The notes under the pieces: model-generated
Databases searched by the model: none
What the model was told of the DNA's origin: nothing
The model's input: only the letters and a program-made list of their open reading frames with translations
Origin: Pteria penguin
Lineage: Eukaryota; Mollusca; Bivalvia; Pterioida; Pteriidae
Reading direction: 5' to 3'
DNA: 64,000 nt
Assembly: GCA_035048485.1 (NCBI GenBank)
Contig: CM068580.1
Span: forward strand, 36,679,585 to 36,743,584
Shown here: positions 11,001 to 64,000 of the stretch, piece after piece
How positions within the stretch are numbered: position 1 is the first letter of the stretch
How the letters are laid out: each line of letters starts with the position of its first letter
Made by a program: the position numbers and the translations under genes

Positions 11001-14000
11001 TGCTATAATTTTTGAACCAAGAAGGGTAGAGCCTTGAAAATTCACACATGGATACATTGTGAAAGGAGCTTTCATTTGGGACTTTGACCTTTGAACTTGT
11101 GACCTTGACCTTGGAGTTTGACCTTTTTAAAAACTTTAACCTTGGCAATAACTTTTGAACCAAGAGGGGTTTGGCTTTGAAATGGCCCACACATGGCTAC
11201 CTTGTGAAAGACCCTTTCATTTAAGATCATGACCTTCATGACCTTGGAGTTCAACCTGTTTTTCAAAGACTAAAATTCAGCTTTAACTTTTGAACCAAAA
11301 GGGATAGGGCTTTGAAACTAAACATATGGATATCTTGTGGAAGGCGCTTTCATTTGGGACCATTACCTTTGACCTTGCAGCTTGACTACTTTTTAAATCT
11401 TTAACCTTCGCTATAACTTTTGAACGAGATGGGTAGAAGTATGAAATTTCACACATGGATACCTTGTGGAAGGCCGCTTCATTTGGGATCATAATCTTCG
11501 AGGTTGTGACCTTGACCTTGGATTTTGACCAGCTTTTCAAAAACTTTAACATTTGCTTAAACATTTTAACCAAGAGGGGTAAGACTTTAAAACTTCGCAC
11601 ATGGATTTCTTGTGACAAGATATTTCATTTGATTACGATAACCATTGATCTTGGAATTCAACCTAATTTCCAAAAGCCTGGGCTATATCTTTTAAACAAA
11701 TAGAGCTAAGGCTTTGGTACTTCACTCATAGATTCCTTATGACAAGAAATTTCATTTGGTACCATGATCTCTGACCTTTTGACCTTAATCTTGAAGTTTG
11801 ACCTATTTTTCGGAAACTTCTACATGGTCTTTTTCTTTTGAAATATTAAAGATAGGGACTTGTAGATTCGTTGTGACCAGAGCTTTCATCTGGTTAACTT
11901 TTGACATTTACCTTGGACTTGACCCTGAGTTCAGAATACATTAAAAATACATGTTTTCCCTCTGATAATGCCCTGCTGGAGAGCTATTTTGAATTTCAAC
12001 AACTTTGTTAACTTAATGTGAGAAGCATTTCCAGTTATGCTGATTTCAAATTGTATTTTGCAGCAGTACGTCATAGAGTGAAAAAATAGAATCATTCATA
12101 ATTGCATATTATTTGTAAAGTTATAATGATTTATTTATGTATTAGAAACTGAGGAGGGATTCTGTTTGCTGTTCAGTAAGAAGATTGGTCTAGATAATAC
12201 TGAATCTGTACCACATGACCCTGAAACTTTGGAGTCACCATTGGGTGATGAAGAGGAGGAAGATGATGAAGGGGGACTGACAGTCACTAACATAAGGCAT
12301 GTCATGAAGGTAAAGATACTAGTATGCTAACATAATGCATGTCATGAAGGTATAGATACTAGTATGCTAACATAAGGCATGTCATGAAGGTATAGATACT
12401 AGTATGCTAACATAAGGCATGTCATGAAGGTATAGATACTAGTATGCTAACATAAGGCATGTCATGAAGGTATAGATACTAGTATGCTAACATAAGGCAT
12501 GTCATGAAGGTGTAAATACTAGTATGCTTAACATAAGGCATGTCATGAAGGTATGAATACTAGTATGGTAACATTAGGCATGTCATGAAGGTATAGATAC
12601 TAGAATGCTAAGATAAGGCATGTCATGAAGGTATAGATACTAGTATGGTAACATAAGGCATGTCATGAAAGTATAGATACAAGTATGGTAACATAAGGCT
12701 TGTCATGAAGGTATAGATACTAGTATGGTAACATAAGGCATGTCATGAAGGTATAGATACTAGTATGGTAACATAATGCATGTCATGAAGGTATAGATAC
12801 TAGTATGCTAACATAAGGCACGTCATGAAGGTATAGATACTAGTATGCTAACATAAGGCATGTCATGAAGGTATAGATACTAGAATGGTAACATTAGGCT
12901 TGTCATGAAGGTATAGATACTAGTATGGTAACATATGGCATGTCATGAAGGTATAGATACTAGTATGGTAACATAAGGCTTTTCATGAAGGTATAAATAC
13001 TAGTATGCTAACATAAGGCATGTCATGAAGGTATAGATACAAGTATGCTAACATAAGGCATGTCATGAAGGTGTAGATACTAGTATGGTAACATAAGGCA
13101 TGCCATGAAAGTATAGATACTAGTATGGTACCATAAGGCTTGTCATGAAGGTATAGATACTAGTATGGTAACATAAGGCTTGTCATGAAGGTATAGATAC
13201 TAGTATGGTAACATAAGGCATGTCATGAAGGTATAGATACTAGTATGGTAACATAAGGCATGCCATGAAGGTATAGATACTAGTATGCTAACATAAGGCT
13301 TGTCATGAAGGTATAGATACTAGAATGGTAACATAAGGCTTGTCATGAAGGTATAAATACTAGTATGCTAACATAAGGCATGTCATGAAGGTATAGATAC
13401 TAGTATGCTTACATAAGGCATGTCATGAAGGTATAGATGCAAATATGGTAACATAAGGTATGTCATGAAGGTATAGATACTAGTATGGTAACATAAGATA
13501 TATCATGAAGGTATAGATACTAGTATGGCTTACACATGTATTAGAAATACAAGTATTTGTGGCATTCAGTTGAAGCGGTATTTCTTTGAGCTGGCATGGC
13601 TCCATGGTTAAGGTGTGTTGTTCAAGATTGGATAGTCATTATTTCAAATCTTGCTTGAATTTCATTTCATGTTAGCGTTTTGTCCTAAGGATGAGACAAT
13701 GATAAATGAGGTCTTATATCATTATAGATACATGTATCGAACTTTCATCTTGATCTTAGGTCATTGTTTAGGTCTTTTCAAGTGATACTCCAGATAGGTT
13801 GGACTTCTGCATAGGTGAAGTAAAGCAGGTGTGGAACTAAACAATAATCAGTCTTTAAGTTAATACCTTTAATAATGTTCAGCTGAAGTGATTTTCCCAA
13901 AAGATATGTATTTCATAAATAAATATGATTGTGTAAACATGATAAAATATGTGAATACTTTAGTTTACTTTTCAAAGTAATCACAGTGAAAATACTTCAT

Positions 14001-16696
14001 CAAATCAAATTTCAGATTCTTGGACCAGAGAAATTTCACATTTTGGCACACCATGTTGTCATTGGAAATCAAATTATTGTAAGAGGAAAACCGAAATCAA
14101 TTGTCACTTCATTCTTATCTGCATTGAAGGTATGTGTATGATTTTTTTTTTTGGCTGGATTGCAAAGCAATTCTAGTCTAAAGATTGGCAATATCTGTCC
14201 ATCAACGTTTTGGGTAAAGTTTCTGGTTGAAGCAAAATCTCAGCAACGAAGAGGAGTATAAACATAATACTTCACACATAGGTTCCTAATGACCAGAGCT
14301 TTCAGATTATGCCATGACTTTAAATCTGGTGACCTTGATTTTGGATTTTGACTTACTTTTAAGAAATTTTAACTTTGGCCATATATTTTGAATCAATCGG
14401 GACAGAGCTTTGATACTTCACACACTTTACAGTTCCCTACACCACAAGCCAAATGCTTAACCACTACACCAAGTCTGTCATTAACCATAGAGGGCTTGGA
14501 TGTCTCACAAACACATCTTTTATTATGTCTTTTCAGTAAGTTGTGTACATGTAGATCATGAATGAATTTTGATATCGAGACACTTTTCTCTGTAAACGTG
14601 TCTGAAGTATTATTCTTGCAATTCTAGGTACTTTTGCCGAAAGGATGTTGTCGTATGGAATCTTATTGCAAGACTTATGAGGAATCATGGAAATGCAACT
14701 TCCTTGGCATTGCTCCAGATGTTGTTATACCAAAACACATCATGTCCAATGAAATGTTTGTATTGATAGACATAACACCATTACCCAATGACAATGTTTT
14801 CAAACCTCCTAGTGATACAAATATCTTGGATGCTTTCTGTTTCAGCATGGCAAGTCCATCAAAATTATCAGACAAAGGTAATTATTTAGGACATTACAAT
14901 GTAATTTCTACTATTTCATTGCTGCAGTGTTTAATATCTAAGTTTCATCAGATTATTTTTCCTTGTTTTGACACAGGTCAGTCAAAAACATCTTTTTAAT
15001 TTCCTGGGAAATATACAAATTTGTATTGAATAGATAGAAAAACTAATTTTGATGTAGATAGGTCAAAGATCAAGGTCACCACTGATAAAAATTGATTGGT
15101 TTGTTTGTTTGTTTGATTATTGTTTTACGTCACTCCACGATTATTTCACGTATATGGTGACGGCATCTGCCTGATGCATTGCATACAAATTTAGACCTTT
15201 GCAACGGACCCACCCGAAGCAGTGAGGGATCTTTTACGTGCCACACCTACCGTGACACGGGACCTCGGTTTTTACTGTCTCATCCGAAAGACAGAACACC
15301 GGTGTGCCCCGGGCGGGAGTCGAACTCTCGATCACGAGCCGAGCACCTTTTCCACTAGGCCACACCGGCTTAAAATTGATTGTGTTAGTTTTGGTATGAT
15401 ATATAAGTTCCATGCATCCTATACCAACCAATTAGGATTTACTGATTGTTTTGATAGGGAAAGATGCCTATTAACTTTAGGGTCAATAGGTAAAAGGTCA
15501 AGACCATCCCTGGTAAAAATAATGGATTAGATTTCTATGGTCGGTAGTAGTCTCTTCTGCAGTTTGAACCTTATGTTGAAGAAGATCGAAGTGTCTAATA
15601 AACATTTGGTGGTGTCTCAGTTGCAGTACAGAGAGATTTTTACAAATTTTTAGAAATATTCTAAATTGCAACTGCTGGGGCATATTCTACAAACATGCTC
15701 TACAGTCACTAAAGCACAAATTGTGTAAGATTTTCAACTTTGTGTGTAACCTACCATGTTTCAATGTTTGCTTAGCACCAAGTGTGTTGTTAAAGATGAA
15801 GATGGCTCTGAGCAACAACAAGTTAACACAGGAAGTGGTGGAGCAGTGTCTTATATGTCTCAAAGAGGAATGGATGAAGTAAGGTTTTATCTTGTCATGT
15901 ATAGATCTATAAAACTTGTGCTGTTAATCTGCGATTCAAATAATTTCCTTTTACATCTACAAGGTATACCGGTATCTGCAAATCTATAGCCATTTCTTGA
16001 ATCTTTCTAACAGTATCATTATATTTACCTATAAAGGCCTGTTTAAGTGAGTATTGTGCTGTTATAGTGCTGATGTTGAAGCAGTAGTGTTTCAGCCGCA
16101 AAGCAATTGATTTCAAAAAGAATTTTTTTGGTTTTTCTACCTCCTGGTAAACAAAATATAACATCCATTACATGGAAATATTATTTTCTAAGAAGCAAAA
16201 AGTGACAGTACCTGGCACTATTGTTTAAGAGCACCTTTATCATTATCCAATCATATACCTAGAATTTATCATGTGATGCACTATGTATTTTACCACAATT
16301 GTATTGGTGTTGTTCTCTTTGGTTGTAAATGCCATATGTTCAAGTTTTATCTTTAAACTTAAAAGAAAACACAAACTTTATATAAATTATTTTTTTTGTT
16401 ACCAGTAAGTTGGATCCTTTTATTATTTTAGACATGACTTTTTGCCATTTATTTCATTAATTTTTCATTTATCATCTATCAAACACGAAACAGATCTTCT
16501 GTGTGATTTCAGCAAGGTTAAAGTATTATTCAAGTTCACTAAAGCCGGAGGAAGTCGTACAGATGAAGATACAAAGAAACTACTGCAAGTTGTTGGCGCC
16601 AATCCAGAGGATACGCCAATATTGAAGTTTTGGATGGAAGGGCTTAGTGTGCAATACAGAAACTATATCTTCACTACATCAAAGTCACAACATTAA
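4843..16696 (+). CDS. FLCN: Folliculin (FLCN), complete, 8 coding exons
   Basis: Joined exons 4843-5064, 7345-7482, 9417-9903, 12146-12309, 14016-14129, 14628-14877, 15776-15878 and 16513-16696 give 553 codons plus stop (human FLCN is 579), with phases consistent across every junction. The N-terminus MNAIISLCHFCEVHGPQ is the folliculin signature. Family knowledge: folliculin with FNIP forms a lysosomal GTPase-activating complex for RagC/D that controls TORC1 and TFEB/TFE3; it has a longin domain followed by a DENN domain. Here the longin part is about residues 75-280 and the DENN part about 330-553, joined by an acidic linker (about 310-325). Arg152 in DSQARGFQ aligns with human Arg164, the GAP arginine finger. 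The ATG at 4843 was chosen because it matches the conserved start; an upstream acceptor-like TTTTCAG at about 4807-4813 suggests a non-coding 5' exon. Intron 1 is GC-AG. Splice sites were inferred by eye and homology. Confidence 0.96.
5419..6935. mobile_element. Non-autonomous pogo/Tigger-like element in FLCN intron 1
   Basis: Terminal inverted repeats CAGTGGACTCC and GGAATCCACTG, extended by TTTTATCTGATA versus TATCAGATTAAAC, flanked on both sides by TA (5417-5418, 6936-6937). About 1.5 kb, no intact transposase recognised. The middle (about 5835-5950) carries AATATAATACGCAC motifs that may be a nested second element. Confidence 0.85.
7345..7482 (+). CDS. FLCN: FLCN coding exon 2
   Basis: 46 codons, residues 75-120, start of the longin region: GCSSVRTGFICRDEDAQVNY and then RQACIRSLSGE, closely matching human RQACVRSLSCE. 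The acceptor is TTATTTTAG and the donor GTAGGT; both ends are phase 0. Confidence 0.95.
8060..8512 (+). pseudogene. Decayed protein-coding relic in FLCN intron 2
   Basis: One frame reads LQALQAFFAQNDWDWTNTLP, then after a frameshift TEDLVVTEPPHNEPLIPQPE, HECPDCFSSSYVIDDCNRQM W, an in-frame stop (where Trp is likely), PPHHCNHRKRKVLYKKFRTM, LCHCGVWDDSRYLDRKTRE. The Cys pairs and protein-like composition show former coding sequence. I do not recognise the family. Probably a transposable-element or retrocopy remnant. Confidence 0.55.
9417..9903 (+). CDS. FLCN: FLCN coding exon 3 (longin core)
   Basis: Largest FLCN exon, residues 121-282 plus one base. It includes VCPGKDGPIFFGNEHLGHVL, IKDSQARGFQ with the putative arginine finger Arg152, MMDKIYLLNSWPFL, CPQRAHRLQS and LLEGPPTEDS, all recognisable counterparts of human folliculin. 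The donor GTAAAA is weak at +5. The ATG at 9546 is an internal methionine, not a gene start. Confidence 0.96.
9960..10640. repeat. Tandem repeat of about 145 bp, about 5 copies, FLCN intron 3
   Basis: CTTTGACATATTGAACTGAA-type blocks recur near 9980, 10125, 10270, 10414 and 10560, each followed by TTGGTATATAACTT, GATGATCTACAGATTGAGTT and GAGTTATTGCCCTTTG. Copies differ by many substitutions. Confidence 0.85.
10980..11935. repeat. Repeat array rich in TGACCTT half-sites, FLCN intron 3
   Basis: Units of roughly 130-150 bp carry CTTTTGAACCAAGAGGGGTA, CACACATGGATACCTTGTG, CTTTCATTTGGGACC and TGACCTTGACCTTGGAGTTT. Related single units occur at 14170-14420, 39340-39725 and 41345-41460. Confidence 0.85.
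12146..12309 (+). CDS. FLCN: FLCN coding exon 4 (acidic linker)
   Basis: Residues 283-337: ETEEGFCLLFSKK, an acidic GDEEEEDDEGG linker, then LTVTNIRHVMK. The last 20 exon bases, ACATAAGGCATGTCATGAAG, and the donor GTAAAGATAC are the first unit of the 40-bp tandem array that follows. The acceptor is TTATGTATTAG. Homology to the human RHMRQVLG region fixes the donor at 12310, because exon 5 continues with ILGPEKFHILAHH. Confidence 0.93.
12290..13530 (+). repeat. 40-bp tandem array (about 31 copies) starting in FLCN exon 4 and spanning its 5' splice site
   Basis: Unit: ACATAAGGCATGTCATGAAG followed by GTATAGATACTAGTATGCTA. The first unit is the last 20 bases of exon 4 plus the real donor GTAAAGATAC. 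Later units have GTATAG in place of GTAAAG, so each carries an AAG-GT junction. Variation (GGTA/GCTA, GGCA/GGCT) is scattered, as in a minisatellite. Confidence 0.95.
13585..13715 (+). mobile_element. tRNA-headed SINE, degenerate
   Basis: TGGCTCCATGGTTAAGGTG resembles an A-box region, TTCAAATCTTGC a B box, and TTTGTCCTAAGGATGAGACA matches the body motif GTCTTTCGGATGAGACAGTA of the SINE at 15100-15372. Confidence 0.5.
14016..14129 (+). CDS. FLCN: FLCN coding exon 5
   Basis: 38 codons, residues 338-375: ILGPEKFHILAHHVVIGNQI, counterpart of the human [20 protein letters not shown]. It starts the DENN part. The acceptor is CAAATTTCAG and the donor GTATGT; phase 0 on both sides. Confidence 0.96.
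14160..14420. repeat. Single unit of the TGACCTT-type repeat, FLCN intron 5
   Basis: CACATAGGTTCCTAATGACC, AGAGCTTTCA and GGTGACCTTGATTTTGGATT match the units at 10980-11935 and 39340-39725. A partial tRNA-like head (GGTGTAGTGGTTAAGC) follows on the minus strand at about 14450-14485. Confidence 0.6.
14628..14877 (+). CDS. FLCN: FLCN coding exon 6
   Basis: Residues 376-458 plus one base: VLLPKGCCRMESYCKTYEES, then WKCNFLGIAPDVVIP, matching human YRCNFLGLSPHVQIP. The acceptor is GCAATTCTAG and the donor GTAATT. Confidence 0.96.
15100..15372 (-). mobile_element. Full-length tRNA-derived SINE
   Basis: On the minus strand, head CCGGTGTGGCCTAGTGGAAA with A box TGGCCTAGTGG and B box AGTTCGACTCC; the first and last eight head bases (CCGGTGTG / CACACCGG) pair as an acceptor stem and CTCGTGA sits in an anticodon-like loop. 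The body has GTCTTTCGGATGAGACAGTA. The tail ends in GACGTAAAACAATAATC and a (CAAA)n run at 15100-15118. The T-stem is degenerate, so this is a SINE and not a working tRNA gene. Confidence 0.85.
15776..15878 (+). CDS. FLCN: FLCN coding exon 7
   Basis: Read in the frame set by exon 6 it gives APSVLLKMKMALSNNKLTQE and then VVEQCLICLKEEWMN, matching human VVDQCLVCLKEEWMN. A different reading frame is open through this exon and would mislead a single-frame scan. The acceptor is GTTTGCTTAG and the donor GTAAGG; it ends in phase 2. Confidence 0.95.
16513..16696 (+). CDS. FLCN: FLCN terminal coding exon 8
   Basis: Residues 493-553: KVKVLFKFTKAGGSRTDEDT, then KLLQVVGANPED, LKFWMEGLSVQYRN and the terminal HIFTTS-like segment, stop TAA at 16694-16696. 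It matches the human C-terminus KVKVLFKFTK...LKFWMTGLSKTYKSH. The acceptor is GTGTGATTTCAG. The last 73 bases belong to a 980-bp segment duplicated downstream. Confidence 0.96.
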
Positions 16697-17580: not shown

Positions 17581-17603
17581 GTTGTTAACTTGTTTCTCAA
17601 TCT

Positions 17604-18580
17604 GAAGTTTTGGATGGAAGGGCTTAGTGTGCAATACAGAAACCATATCTTCACTACATCAAAGTCACAACATTAATGTCTCTATACTTGTCTCATGTCT
17701 CCTTAAACTTTTGGGTTTATCTAAGAAGCAGCCTTTTTTCAATCCCCATATTTGTAAGGACAGCATATATATACGATAGTTTATAGGACCAGAGAATGGT
17801 ATTGAGCTACAATTACTCCAGACTATTACAAAATATTTATATCAGGTTCAGCTGCAGAGGATGTATATATCGATAATGGGTCACTACAACCAGCAGTGAA
17901 CGTAAATTCTTCTGCTGGTTAAATCCAGTTTGGCATTGTCTTGTCACACTACATGAGACTACAGAAGGTGGTGACATCTATCAACCATGATATACATAAC
18001 AAGACAGTAGTCAGCTTTAGTCTGCTGTGCTTAACATCTAGTTCTTAAGAGCCAATTAATACCACGTTGTGTATTTACTGTGTACTACATATTTGATAAT
18101 GAAGAAGGCTGTTTTCCTGTTAGGCATGCTTACTTTGTCTTAGAATCTGCATTGAAGTATTGGTTACATATGCACAAGTAAGAGCAATTGTTTGAGGAGT
18201 ATAGCATTTATGCTGCTCCCATAAGGCACAAATAATTTATTGAAATAATGTTCATAATAATCATTAAGTATACCCATATGGGCTTTCAATTGTAATTGCT
18301 TGATGTTATGAAAATAAATGTTTTGTTTATTGACAATTTACTGTCTTTCAGTCTAAACATTATTACTTACGGGGGCCAGGTAGCACAGTTGGTAGTGCAA
18401 TCGCTTCTCACCAATGCGACACTGGTTCGATTCCCGGTGTGGTAAGGGAGATTGTGACCAACCTGGTTTCCTGAGTTTTCTCCAGGTACTCTGGTTTCCT
18501 CCCACACAAACGACACCCTTACGCCAAGATCTGTGCCAAGGAGCAAGATTTATAAAACAAGTTAACTTGTTTCTCAATCG
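17604..18580 (+). repeat. Tandem segmental duplication, copy B (truncated FLCN end plus UTR plus SINE)
   Basis: Near-identical second copy of 16624-17603. At 17608-17676 it keeps an intact reading frame for the last FLCN residues (one Tyr-to-His change), but it lacks the acceptor and upstream half of exon 8. As a coding exon it is therefore most likely dead. It ends just before CGTTGTAAAATAAATAAAG. Confidence 0.93.
18367..18557 (+). mobile_element. tRNA-derived SINE, copy B
   Basis: Same SINE in the second 980-bp copy. Its B box is GGTTCGATTCC, closer to the consensus than copy A (GGTTCAATTCC), so copy B may preserve the ancestral state better. It was carried by the segmental duplication, not by independent insertion, because the flanks are shared too. 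Confidence 0.75.
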
Positions 18581-43124: not shown

Positions 43125-44213
43125 TATATATATATATATTTATATATATATATATGTATGTATGTATACGTTAATTTTGTTTATCAAAAAGTCATATGTT
43201 AATATTAAGTGCTATAAAATCCAGGGACAGGTATCCAATAGACCAACCCAGCGAACACGAGGATCAACAGAGCGAGGAGGGATGACCATAACTTTTAGGT
43301 CTAATGTATCTGACAGTGACATGAGTGATGAGGAAGAACCAGATTTTGGTAGGGGTAAAGTACTACCCCCTATCCAACAGAATTCTGATTCTGAAGACTA
43401 TCCTCGGGACCAGGGTAGAGGAGGCATGAGGATGGTAGACACTCCCTCTATGAGTGGATCAGAGGACTATCGTGACATGCAAATGAGGCGACCTGGAATG
43501 ATGGATACTCCGTCATCAGCAACAAGCTCATCAATGTCTCCTGCTAAGATGGCTGTTTTACAACAAAAAGGAATGAATGAATACTCTGATAGTGATGAGT
43601 CCGATGAAGATAACACCAGTCCCGTTCCTCACACTGCCCCAAGTCCTGTACAAAGTTCTGTCCCCCCAGAAACACCTGTACAACAAAAGTCATCTCCACA
43701 TTCCAGTAAGGAAGGGTCTGAGGGTGAGGATCAGATAGGAGAGCTGCCTTCTATGTTTCAGCGTGATCATAAAGACTTACACACACCTAAATCTCCAATG
43801 ACAGTACAAGGACCTCCTATGTCCAGTACTCCTGATGATGTTCCTCCTGCTCCAGCTCCTGATGGCACTCCTGACCCTAACAAGATGGAACATCTGGAAT
43901 CAGAAGAACAGGTAAGTATTCCTGATGATATTCTTCCTGCTGTTGTTTCTCATGATCCTGATAGGATATTATTTCAGACTCAAAAGGACAGATAAGTACT
44001 CCTGATGATAGTCTTCCTCCTGCTGATTCTCCTAATCCTAATAGGATATTATTTCAGACTCACTACTCTTGATGATAATCCTCCCTTTGTACATTGAGGC
44101 TCATGTGCATGTAGCTTTGATATGTATTTTCAAATCAAGTCAATTAACAGCTTATTCACTTGAGTAAAAAGTACATGATGTGTTTGAAAATACATGTACA
44201 TTTTTGTTAACAT

Positions 44214-62263: not shown

Positions 62264-62445
62264 GTATTGGGACATCTGTTTCATTTATACATTAAATCAA
62301 TAGGTCTGTACTGTTTTTGATATACGGTACTGAAGAAAATAATATAGAGCAATGATAGCACAGAAACATTAATCTATAAAAGTAAGAGCTGTTAGTCAAT
62401 TGATTTCTTAATTGTATAATGTGTCAAAGATCTCTAAGAAACTCT

Positions 62446-64000
62446 GTTCACTCGTAATCCTTGTGATATTGTTTCCCTACAGCTTGTTCACTTGTAATCC
62501 TTGTGATATTGTTTCTCTATAGCTTGTTCACTTGTAATCCTGTTGATATTGTTTCTCTACAGCTTGTTCACTTGTAATACTTTTGTTATTGTTTCTCTAT
62601 AGCTTGTTCATTAGTAATCCTGTTGATATTGTTTCTCTACAGCTTGTTCACTTGTAATACTTGTGTTATTGTTTCTCTATAGCTTGTTCATTAGTAATAC
62701 TTGTGTTATTGTTTCTCTATAGCTTGTTCACTTGTAATCCTTGTGTTATTGTTTCTCTATAGCTTGTTCACTTGTAATCCTTGTGTTATTGTTTCTCTAT
62801 AGCTTGTTCACTTGTAATCCTTGTGTTATTGTTTCTCTATAGCTTGTTCACTTGTAATCCTTGTGTTATTGTTTCTCTTTAGCTTGTTCACTTGTAATCC
62901 CTGTGTTACTGTTTCTCTTTAGCTTGTTCACTTGTAATCCTTGTGTTATTGTTTCTCTTTAGCTTGTTCACTAGTAATCCTTGTCTTATTGTTTCTCTAT
63001 AGCTTGTTCATTTGTAATCCCTGTGTTATTGTTTTTCTTTAGCTTGTTCACTTGTAATCTTTGTATTATTGTTTCTCTTTAGCTTGTTCACTTGTAATCC
63101 TTGTGTTATTGTTTCTCTTTAGTTTGTTCACTTGTAATCCTTGTCTTATTGTTTGTCTTTGGCTTGTTCATTAGTAATACTTGTGTTATTGTTTTTCTTT
63201 AGCTTGTTCACTTGTAATCCTTGTGTTATTGTTTCTCTATAGCTTGTTCACTTGTAATCCTTGTGTTATTGTTTGTCTATAGCTTGTTCACTTGTAATCC
63301 TTGCGTTATTGTTTCTCTTTAGCTTGTTCACTTGTAATCCTTGTGTTATTGTTTGTTTATAGCTTGTTCACTTGTAATCCTTGTGTTATTGTTTGTCTTT
63401 GGCTTGTTCATTAGTAATACTTGTGTTATTGTTTTTCTTTAGCTTGTTCACTTGTAATCCTTGTATTATTGTTTCTCTTTAGCTTGTTCACTTGTAATCC
63501 TTGTCTTATTGTTTGTCTTTGGCTTGTTCATTAGTAATACTTGTGTTATTGTTTTTCTTTAGCTTGTTCACTTGTAATCCTTGTGTTATTGTTTCTCTAT
63601 AGCTTGTTCACTTGTAATCCTTGTGTTATTGTTTCTCTTTAGCTTGTTCACTTGTAATCCTTGTGTTATTGTTTCTCTATAGCTTGTTCACTTGTAATCC
63701 TTGTGTCATTGTTTTAACTATAGCTTGTTCACTTGTAATGCTTGTGTTATTGTTTCTCTTTAGCTTGTTCACTTGTAATCCTTGTGTTATTGTTTCTCTT
63801 TAGCTTGTTCACTTGTAATCCTTGTGTTATTGTTTCTCTTTAGCCTGTTCACTTGTAATCTTTGTATTATTGTTTCTCTTTAGCTTGTTCACTTGTAATC
63901 CTTGGGTTATTGTTTCTCTTTAGCTTGTTCACTTGTAATGCTTGTGTTATTGTTTCTCTTTAGCTTGTTCACTTGTAATCCTTGTGTTATTGTTTTCCCT
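62446..64000 (+). repeat. 40-bp tandem array with acceptor-like core, about 38 copies, running off the window
   Basis: Unit: CTTGTTCACTTGTAATCC then TTGTGTTATTGTTTCTCTATAG. Each unit has a T-rich tract and TAG or CAG before CTTGTTC, so it looks like a 3' splice site. The oldest copies at the left have GATATTGTTTCCCTACAG. Composition is uniform apart from scattered point changes. Confidence 0.95.

What the first reader, a model, noticed from the sequence alone, without database searches (positions are those of the whole stretch)
12290..13530. A 40-bp minisatellite amplifies the FLCN exon 4 / intron 4 boundary, giving about 30 decoy 5' splice sites
Seen: the first unit is the real exon end (ACATAAGGCATGTCATGAAG) plus the donor GTAAAG; about 30 head-to-tail copies follow, each keeping the 20 exon-derived bases and an AAG-GT junction (mostly GTATAG). 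Inference: the exon end was the seed of the array. Because 40 is not a multiple of 3, use of a later donor would usually shift the frame and end the protein in the DENN region. The cell must pick the first of about 31 similar donors, or isoforms differ among individuals with copy number.
Basis: partly seen in the sequence, partly recalled or inferred. Interest (0 to 1): 0.86.

Follow-up and report, generated by a model that had tools for sequence, protein, structure and literature searches.

The report
Splice-site minisatellite in bivalve FLCN gene
In a bivalve's folliculin gene the end of one exon, with its splice signal, has been copied into a row of 31 repeats; the same kind of event is known in a human gene and turned up at other genes of this animal, so it is a natural test of how cells choose among near-identical splice sites.

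Summary
Thirty-one 40-bp units run from 12287/12288 to 13528; the first is the end of FLCN coding exon 4 plus its donor. The exon is the seed: it encodes FLCN residues shared with other bivalves, and exons 5-8 are intact. Two details change. The first donor (GTAAAG) differs from all 30 later copies (23 are GTATAG); 29 of the 30 score lower and one scores higher, as does one off-register site. Any later in-register donor reads a stop at 12328, so all give the same truncated protein whatever the copy number. Best reading: ordinary blind minisatellite expansion, donor 1 making the functional mRNA, later donors causing at most non-productive leakage. The kind is known: human CBS has a 31-bp VNTR across an exon end, 16-21 copies. 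New is recurrence. A pattern scan of this genome listed 27 consensus-donor arrays on two contigs; 9 begin at exon ends of recognisable genes (PDE5, KRI1, IFT172, IFT56, SMARCAD1, EED, ENPP, LRR, weakly a cadherin), 3 more probably do. That fraction resembles ordinary occurrences of the motif (2-3 of 7), so no special mechanism is needed. RNA was not testable.

The parts
12146..12309 (+). FLCN coding exon 4 (fourth of 8 coding exons mapped), ends ...NIRHVMK in phase 0
   Evidence: tblastn of Pinctada FLCN, splice neighbourhoods
12287..12326 (+). unit 1 of the array: 23 exon bases + 17 intron bases, carries the authentic donor
12310..12315 (+). authentic 5' splice site AAG|GTAAAG; joining here to exon 5 gives the MK|ILG junction seen in other bivalve FLCN proteins
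12327..13528 (+). 30 further 40-bp copies, each with a GT in register (23 AAG|GTATAG)
12328..12330 (+). in-frame TAA read by every transcript that uses a later in-register donor (product ...IRHVMKVKILVC)
12551..12556 (+). copy-7 donor AAG|GTATGA, scores 8.0 against 7.43 for the authentic donor
13458..13463 (+). off-register AAG|GTATGT in copy 30, scores 9.61 (same 9 bases as the exon 5 donor)
14016..14129 (+). FLCN coding exon 5, acceptor CAAATTTCAG|ATTCTTGG
14628..14877 (+). FLCN coding exon 6
15776..15878 (+). FLCN coding exon 7
16513..16696 (+). FLCN coding exon 8 (last)
43825..44075 (+). second case in the window: exon end of a HEATR4-like gene (exon ends 43911, donor CAG|GTAAGT from 43912) repeated about every 80 bp, three copies; the next copy reads ATAAGT where the donor would be
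   Evidence: homologs

Best explanation
A 40-bp stretch straddling the 3' end of FLCN coding exon 4 and its 5' splice site was tandemly duplicated and then expanded to 31 units by ordinary minisatellite turnover, which is blind to splice sites (seed shown; turnover inferred). The exon copy stayed under protein constraint while the copies drifted. Functional FLCN mRNA must come from the first donor, because joining 12309 to 14016 restores the MK|ILG junction of other bivalve FLCN proteins (shown from sequence). Donor 1 is favoured by a better +4 base and by giving a 164-nt exon, while later donors give longer exons (inferred). Any use of a later in-register donor reads TAA at 12328 and yields one and the same truncated protein without the C-terminal DENN domain, an expected target of nonsense-mediated decay (stop shown; decay inferred). 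The array is therefore at most a source of non-productive splicing whose amount might grow with copy number, as reported for human CBS activity; it is not an isoform generator.
For: Array and unit map; FLCN identity; exon junction aligned without an insertion in 16 homologs; exons 5-8 open and 65-93% identical to Pinctada; in-frame stop 12328; donor scores 7.43 versus 4.61 for 23 of 30 copies; no constraint seen on the array donors: invariance of the two GT columns P = 0.22, and exon-derived columns depart in 39 of 690 cells against 15 of 510 for intron-derived ones; single locus in the genome as far as reported; minisatellites are dense here, 14 arrays of period 15 or more and 5 or more copies in 200 kb; precedents CBS and OCT1.
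Against: Strength alone does not secure donor 1: with additive odds it gets 0.16 of the choice among the 31 in-register donors and 0.07 among all 103 GTs of the array; a limit on exon length of 300 nt raises it to 0.61. Two array sites and two more GTs of intron 4 (13613, 13829) outscore it. Greater accessibility of donor 1 holds for short folding windows only (rank 1-2 of 31, against 7-8 for longer ones). No RNA data.
Confidence: 0.8

Rival explanations
1. The array is a functional rheostat: many weak donors capture U1 snRNP and divert a copy-number-dependent share of FLCN pre-mRNA into non-productive mRNA, and this is selected.
For: Human CBS: more 31-bp repeats were reported to lower CBS activity (PMC5188458 passage). 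OCT1: an 8-bp donor duplication diverts 38-52% of minigene transcripts (PMC8137991). Naive competition would favour the array.
Against: No sign of selection on the array donors; the same arrangement sits at unrelated genes of the genome, which suits blind turnover.
Confidence: 0.13
2. The array acts through RNA pairing on splicing, as the TERT intron 6 38-bp VNTR is reported to do.
For: Units hold a palindrome (ATACTAGTAT) and ten of them fold on themselves at -106 kcal/mol; an 11-base perfect complement of the unit lies in FLCN intron 3 at 11232-11242 (E 0.86); TERT precedent (PMC3948165 abstract).
Against: No longer complement in the window than 10-15 bases, at E values expected by chance; accessibility effects depend on the folding window.
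Confidence: 0.04
3. A special process seeds arrays at splice donors (for example breaks at R-loops, or an introner-like element).
For: Matches of a consensus-donor array pattern outnumber those of the reversed pattern genome-wide, 685+392 against 367+221 (matches, not arrays), and 9-12 of 27 listed arrays sit at exon ends, although single AGGTAAGT sites are not more frequent than the reversed motif in 273,901 held bases (7 against 16).
Against: Of those 7 single sites 2-3 also lie at coding-looking exon ends, the same fraction (Fisher P 0.67-1.0, small numbers). The FLCN unit has no reported dispersed copies.
Confidence: 0.06
4. An older intron minisatellite grew into the exon and replaced its end.
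For: None beyond contiguity.
Against: The exon end encodes residues shared with oysters, an ark clam and Pinctada; the exon copy is intact while the others drift.
Confidence: 0.02

Closest known systems
Human CBS 31-bp VNTR, c.1444_1467+7(16_21)
   Same: Unit spans the exon end and donor (by its name 24 exon + 7 intron bases); many copies with substitutions between units (PMC2630376 passages); at the exon 13/intron 13 boundary (PMC5188458 and PMC1395315 passages).
   Different: Other gene and phylum; 40-bp unit with 23 exon bases here; CBS is known to be polymorphic and linked to activity, here neither is known.
OCT1/SLC22A1 8-bp duplication of the exon 7 donor (rs35854239)
   Same: Donor duplicated; the later donor gives a truncated product that is probably decayed (PMC8137991 abstract and discussion).
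   Different: One extra copy instead of 30.
Minisatellites at exon-intron boundaries of human paralogs (De Grassi and Ciccarelli 2009)
   Same: Tandem repeats at exon-intron boundaries change splicing (PMC2812944 passages).
   Different: Recent human paralogs with RNA evidence, some forming new introns; FLCN exon 4 here has one reported copy.
TERT intron 6 38-bp VNTR
   Same: Intronic array of similar unit size affecting splicing (PMC3948165 abstract).
   Different: [quoted passage not shown] reported to work by RNA pairing, not by donor copies.
Intron gain by tandem duplication across a splice boundary (potato RdRp)
   Same: Tandem duplication crossing an intron-exon boundary (PMC4974935 abstract).
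   Different: A new intron formed there; whether one could form here was not tested.

Membership tests
VNTR spanning an exon end and 5' splice site (CBS type) | repeat unit contains exon end plus donor, first unit is the real boundary | tested here: met
VNTR spanning an exon end and 5' splice site (CBS type) | many tandem copies with point differences | tested here: met
   31 units; mean pairwise distance 3.03 of 40 among copies 2-31
VNTR spanning an exon end and 5' splice site (CBS type) | copy number polymorphic | not testable with these tools
   one assembly only; one match of exon 4 in it
VNTR spanning an exon end and 5' splice site (CBS type) | array affects splicing or activity | not testable with these tools
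   no RNA held
Introner or dispersed splice-site element | unit present at many dispersed loci | tested here: not met
   all 20 reported genome matches lie in this array
TERT-type RNA-pairing VNTR | unit complementary to another part of the pre-mRNA | tested here: inconclusive
   minus-strand matches of 10-15 bases at chance-level E, one of 11 bases in FLCN intron 3; pairing energies to the rest of the pre-mRNA not modelled
Intron gain by tandem duplication | a copy-to-copy segment is spliced out as a new intron | not tested
   needs RNA

The most novel reading that the evidence does not exclude
In this bivalve, exon-end/donor minisatellites form a genome-wide class. At several of them (PDE5, KRI1, LRR, IFT56, cadherin, NUDC-like) the unit is a multiple of 3 and the first extra unit is open, so later donors would add repeats in frame. 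The spliceosome either reliably takes the 5'-most of many consensus donors (18 further sites of 6 bits or more at PDE5), or these genes make copy-number-dependent isoforms and non-productive mRNA.
Probability: 0.2. Interest if true: 0.75.

Novelty: new member of a known kind. Interest (0 to 1): 0.5.

Why it matters
How the spliceosome picks one of several near-identical 5' splice sites has, to my knowledge (recalled), mostly been studied with a few engineered sites. Here natural genes offer up to 31 in one row, with mostly weaker copies (FLCN), equal copies (PDE5, KRI1, IFT172) and a copy without GT (HEATR4-like) in one genome, so ordinary long-read RNA from one animal could test whether position, strength or exon length decides. 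It also warns that gene annotation in minisatellite-rich genomes may extend exons into such arrays, since several stay open in frame.

Tried and rejected
Second 40-bp array (62445-63995 in the window, on to position 1046 of L009): its units look like 3' splice sites, so I tested whether it is the acceptor-side counterpart. The next exon of that gene starts near 1499 of L009 with acceptor TTTTTCAG|TCATTGGAAATC, about 450 bases past the array and unlike the unit: rejected.

Conserved GT in all copies as evidence of selection: rejected (P = 0.22).

First donor protected by RNA accessibility: not robust to window size.

Unit length a multiple of 3 as a selected feature of the class: 8 of 14 cases against one third expected, P = 0.058; not claimed. 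The period of ENPP was entered there as 39.5.

Rfam: 0 matches in the window at gathering scores. The reversed donor motif as its own query did not complete; only the control counts inside one search are used. They count matches, not arrays. A KRI1 exon query found nothing in the PDB.

Full report
What is there. The window lies in a bivalve genome, probably a pteriomorph (nearest FLCN protein in the search Pinctada imbricata, 75% identity over the query; assembly 838 Mb in 49 contigs, window = C1:36679585-36743584). FLCN runs on the + strand with eight coding exons mapped. Coding exon 4 is 12146-12309. From 12287/12288 to 13528 there are 31 head-to-tail 40-bp units. The first is 23 exon bases plus 17 intron bases with donor AAG|GTAAAG. 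The 30 others keep GT in register: 23 AAG|GTATAG, 2 AAA|GTATAG, 2 AAG|GTATAA, and one each of AAG|GTGTAA, AAG|GTATGA and AAG|GTGTAG.

Seed. The exon end encodes NIRHVMK, joined to ILG of exon 5. In an alignment with 16 FLCN homologs this stretch aligns without insertion; oysters read NIRHLMKILG or a near form, an ark clam NLRHLMKILG, Pinctada NTRHAMKILG. Exon 4 has one reported match in the assembly, and all 20 reported matches of the doubled unit lie here. So the exon is the source of the array and not the reverse. Unit 1 is as close to the other copies (mean 2.9 differences) as they are to each other (3.03), and differs from copies 3, 4, 5 and 28 by one base, at donor position +4. Whether A or T is ancestral at +4 cannot be told without an outgroup.

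Consequence of using a later donor. Reading on from exon 4 gives VKILVC then TAA at 12328. Every in-register later donor (12350 and on) includes that stop, so all would give the same truncated protein, ending about where the Folliculin_C match begins.

Would they be used? With a recalled human-like donor matrix, donor 1 scores 7.43 and the modal copy 4.61; 29 of 30 copies lie 2.8 to 6.2 bits below donor 1, 12551 scores 8.0, and an off-register site at 13458 scores 9.61. The matrix is a weak judge: in introns 3, 6 and 7 of this gene the real donor ranks third, second and third among GTs, in introns 2 and 5 first. Under additive odds donor 1 would take 0.16 of the choice among the 31 and 0.07 among all 103 GTs of the array, but 0.61 if exon 4 may not exceed 300 nt. 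Intact downstream exons imply that donor 1 is used enough to make FLCN (inference). In the OCT1 duplication, two copies of a donor 8 bp apart split 38-52% to the wrong one in minigenes, yet the wrong product is 0.3-0.6% in liver, probably by decay (PMC8137991 abstract, outline and discussion read). Local folding shows donor 1 as the most accessible of 31 at one window size and second at a shorter one, but rank 7 and 8 at longer ones, so I do not lean on it. Array donors show no mark of selection: invariance of the GT columns has P = 0.22, and the exon-derived columns vary at least as much as the intron-derived ones (39 of 690, or 25 of 660 without the first column, against 15 of 510).

Known kind. 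Human CBS carries a 31-bp VNTR named c.1444_1467+7(16_21) (PMC2630376, passages): by its name the last 24 exon bases and 7 intron bases, 16 to 21 times. A review passage places it at the exon 13/intron 13 boundary and reports lower activity with more repeats (PMC5188458, citing Lievers 2001, which was not held). Minisatellites at exon-intron boundaries of human paralogs are reported to alter splicing (PMC2812944 passages). In ten paper searches, whose listings are capped, I noticed no listing that describes the FLCN case or a bivalve case; only one search was aimed at bivalves.

Not alone. In this window a HEATR4-like gene (homologs) has its exon end (43825-43911, donor CAG|GTAAGT from 43912) followed by two more copies at about 80 bp (alignment scores 44, 31 and 95 against dinucleotide-shuffle maxima 12, 15 and 23); the second copy has ATAAGT where the donor would be. 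A genome pattern scan for three AGGTAAGT at 20-50 bp spacing gave 685+392 matches against 367+221 for the pattern read backwards (matches, not arrays). The listed places, only the first of them, form 27 distinct arrays on contigs C1 and C2 by my grouping. I fetched flanks of all 27 and read them. Nine start at an exon end supported by a family or structure match: KRI1 (PF05178; nothing in the PDB), PDE5 (3.2e-18), an LRR gene, a cadherin (weak, 6.9e-4; no Pfam match), IFT172 (6.3e-16), IFT56 (5.6e-13), EED (7e-14 behind generic WD40 chains), ENPP, SMARCAD1 (1.7e-9; SNF2). Three more look like exon ends without a match in a call (L045 cysteine-rich and L047 signal-peptide-like; L056 NUDC-like by recall). 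Two are unclear (L030, L048). Thirteen show no exon (L035-L044, L050, L053, L054; in L038 the array starts before the stretch). In EED, ENPP and L047 only 0, 1 and 5 exon bases before the donor match the next strong donor exactly, so those arrays begin at or near the donor itself. In KRI1, PDE5, LRR, cadherin and IFT56 and the NUDC-like case the first extra unit is in frame and open; in FLCN, the HEATR4-like gene, IFT172, SMARCAD1, EED, ENPP, L045 and L047 an early stop or a frameshift follows. The pattern asks for perfect donors, so it cannot say whether later donors are usually weaker.

Special mechanism or chance? Minisatellites of period 15 or more and 5 or more copies occur 14 times in 200 kb taken at fixed coordinates, so blind placement must hit donors. 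In 273,901 held bases not picked for the motif (the window, L009 and the 200 kb) AGGTAAGT occurs 7 times, 2-3 of them at coding-looking exon ends, one being the HEATR4-like donor itself. That is the same fraction as 9-12 of 27 among arrays (Fisher P 0.67-1.0; small numbers). So blind seeding suffices, and there is no sign of strong purging either. Against this, the reversed motif occurs 16 times in the same bases while its array pattern has fewer matches, which would allow enrichment of donor motifs in arrays; the sample is too small to say.

Verdict. A real exon-end/donor minisatellite, a new member of the CBS kind, with an overstated first interpretation of isoforms; and a recurring class in this genome that makes donor choice testable.

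Noticed in passing
C1 and C2 of the window's genome; L031, L032, L033, L034, L045, L046, L047, L049, L051, L052, L055, L056: Tandem arrays with a consensus donor per unit start at exon ends of unrelated genes (PDE5, LRR, cadherin, KRI1, cysteine-rich, EED, signal-peptide-like exon, ENPP, IFT172, IFT56, SMARCAD1, NUDC-like).
   Followed up: partly
43825-44075: Exon end of a HEATR4-like gene present three times about every 80 bp across its donor; the second copy's donor reads ATAAGT.
   Followed up: partly
62445-63995 and L009:1-1046: A second 40-bp array (about 50 units across the window end) whose unit resembles a 3' splice site (TTGTTTCTCTTTAG|C); it sits inside an intron of the HEATR4-like gene, about 450 bp before the next exon, and is not exon-seeded.
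   Followed up: yes
5065: FLCN coding exon 1 uses a GC donor (GAG|GCAAGT, GC-AG intron).
   Followed up: partly
17603-17676: A 98.6% copy of the last 74 bases of FLCN exon 8 lies about 0.9 kb downstream of the gene's stop.
   Followed up: no
L031 (reverse strand): The PDE5-like exon is followed by 18 further donor sites of 6 bits or more, 48-bp period; reading on stays open in frame for 276 nt, so gene predictors could take it as exon.
   Followed up: partly
L025:1-4355: A 54-bp, 81-copy array in the fixed-coordinate sample on C5; nature unknown.
   Followed up: no
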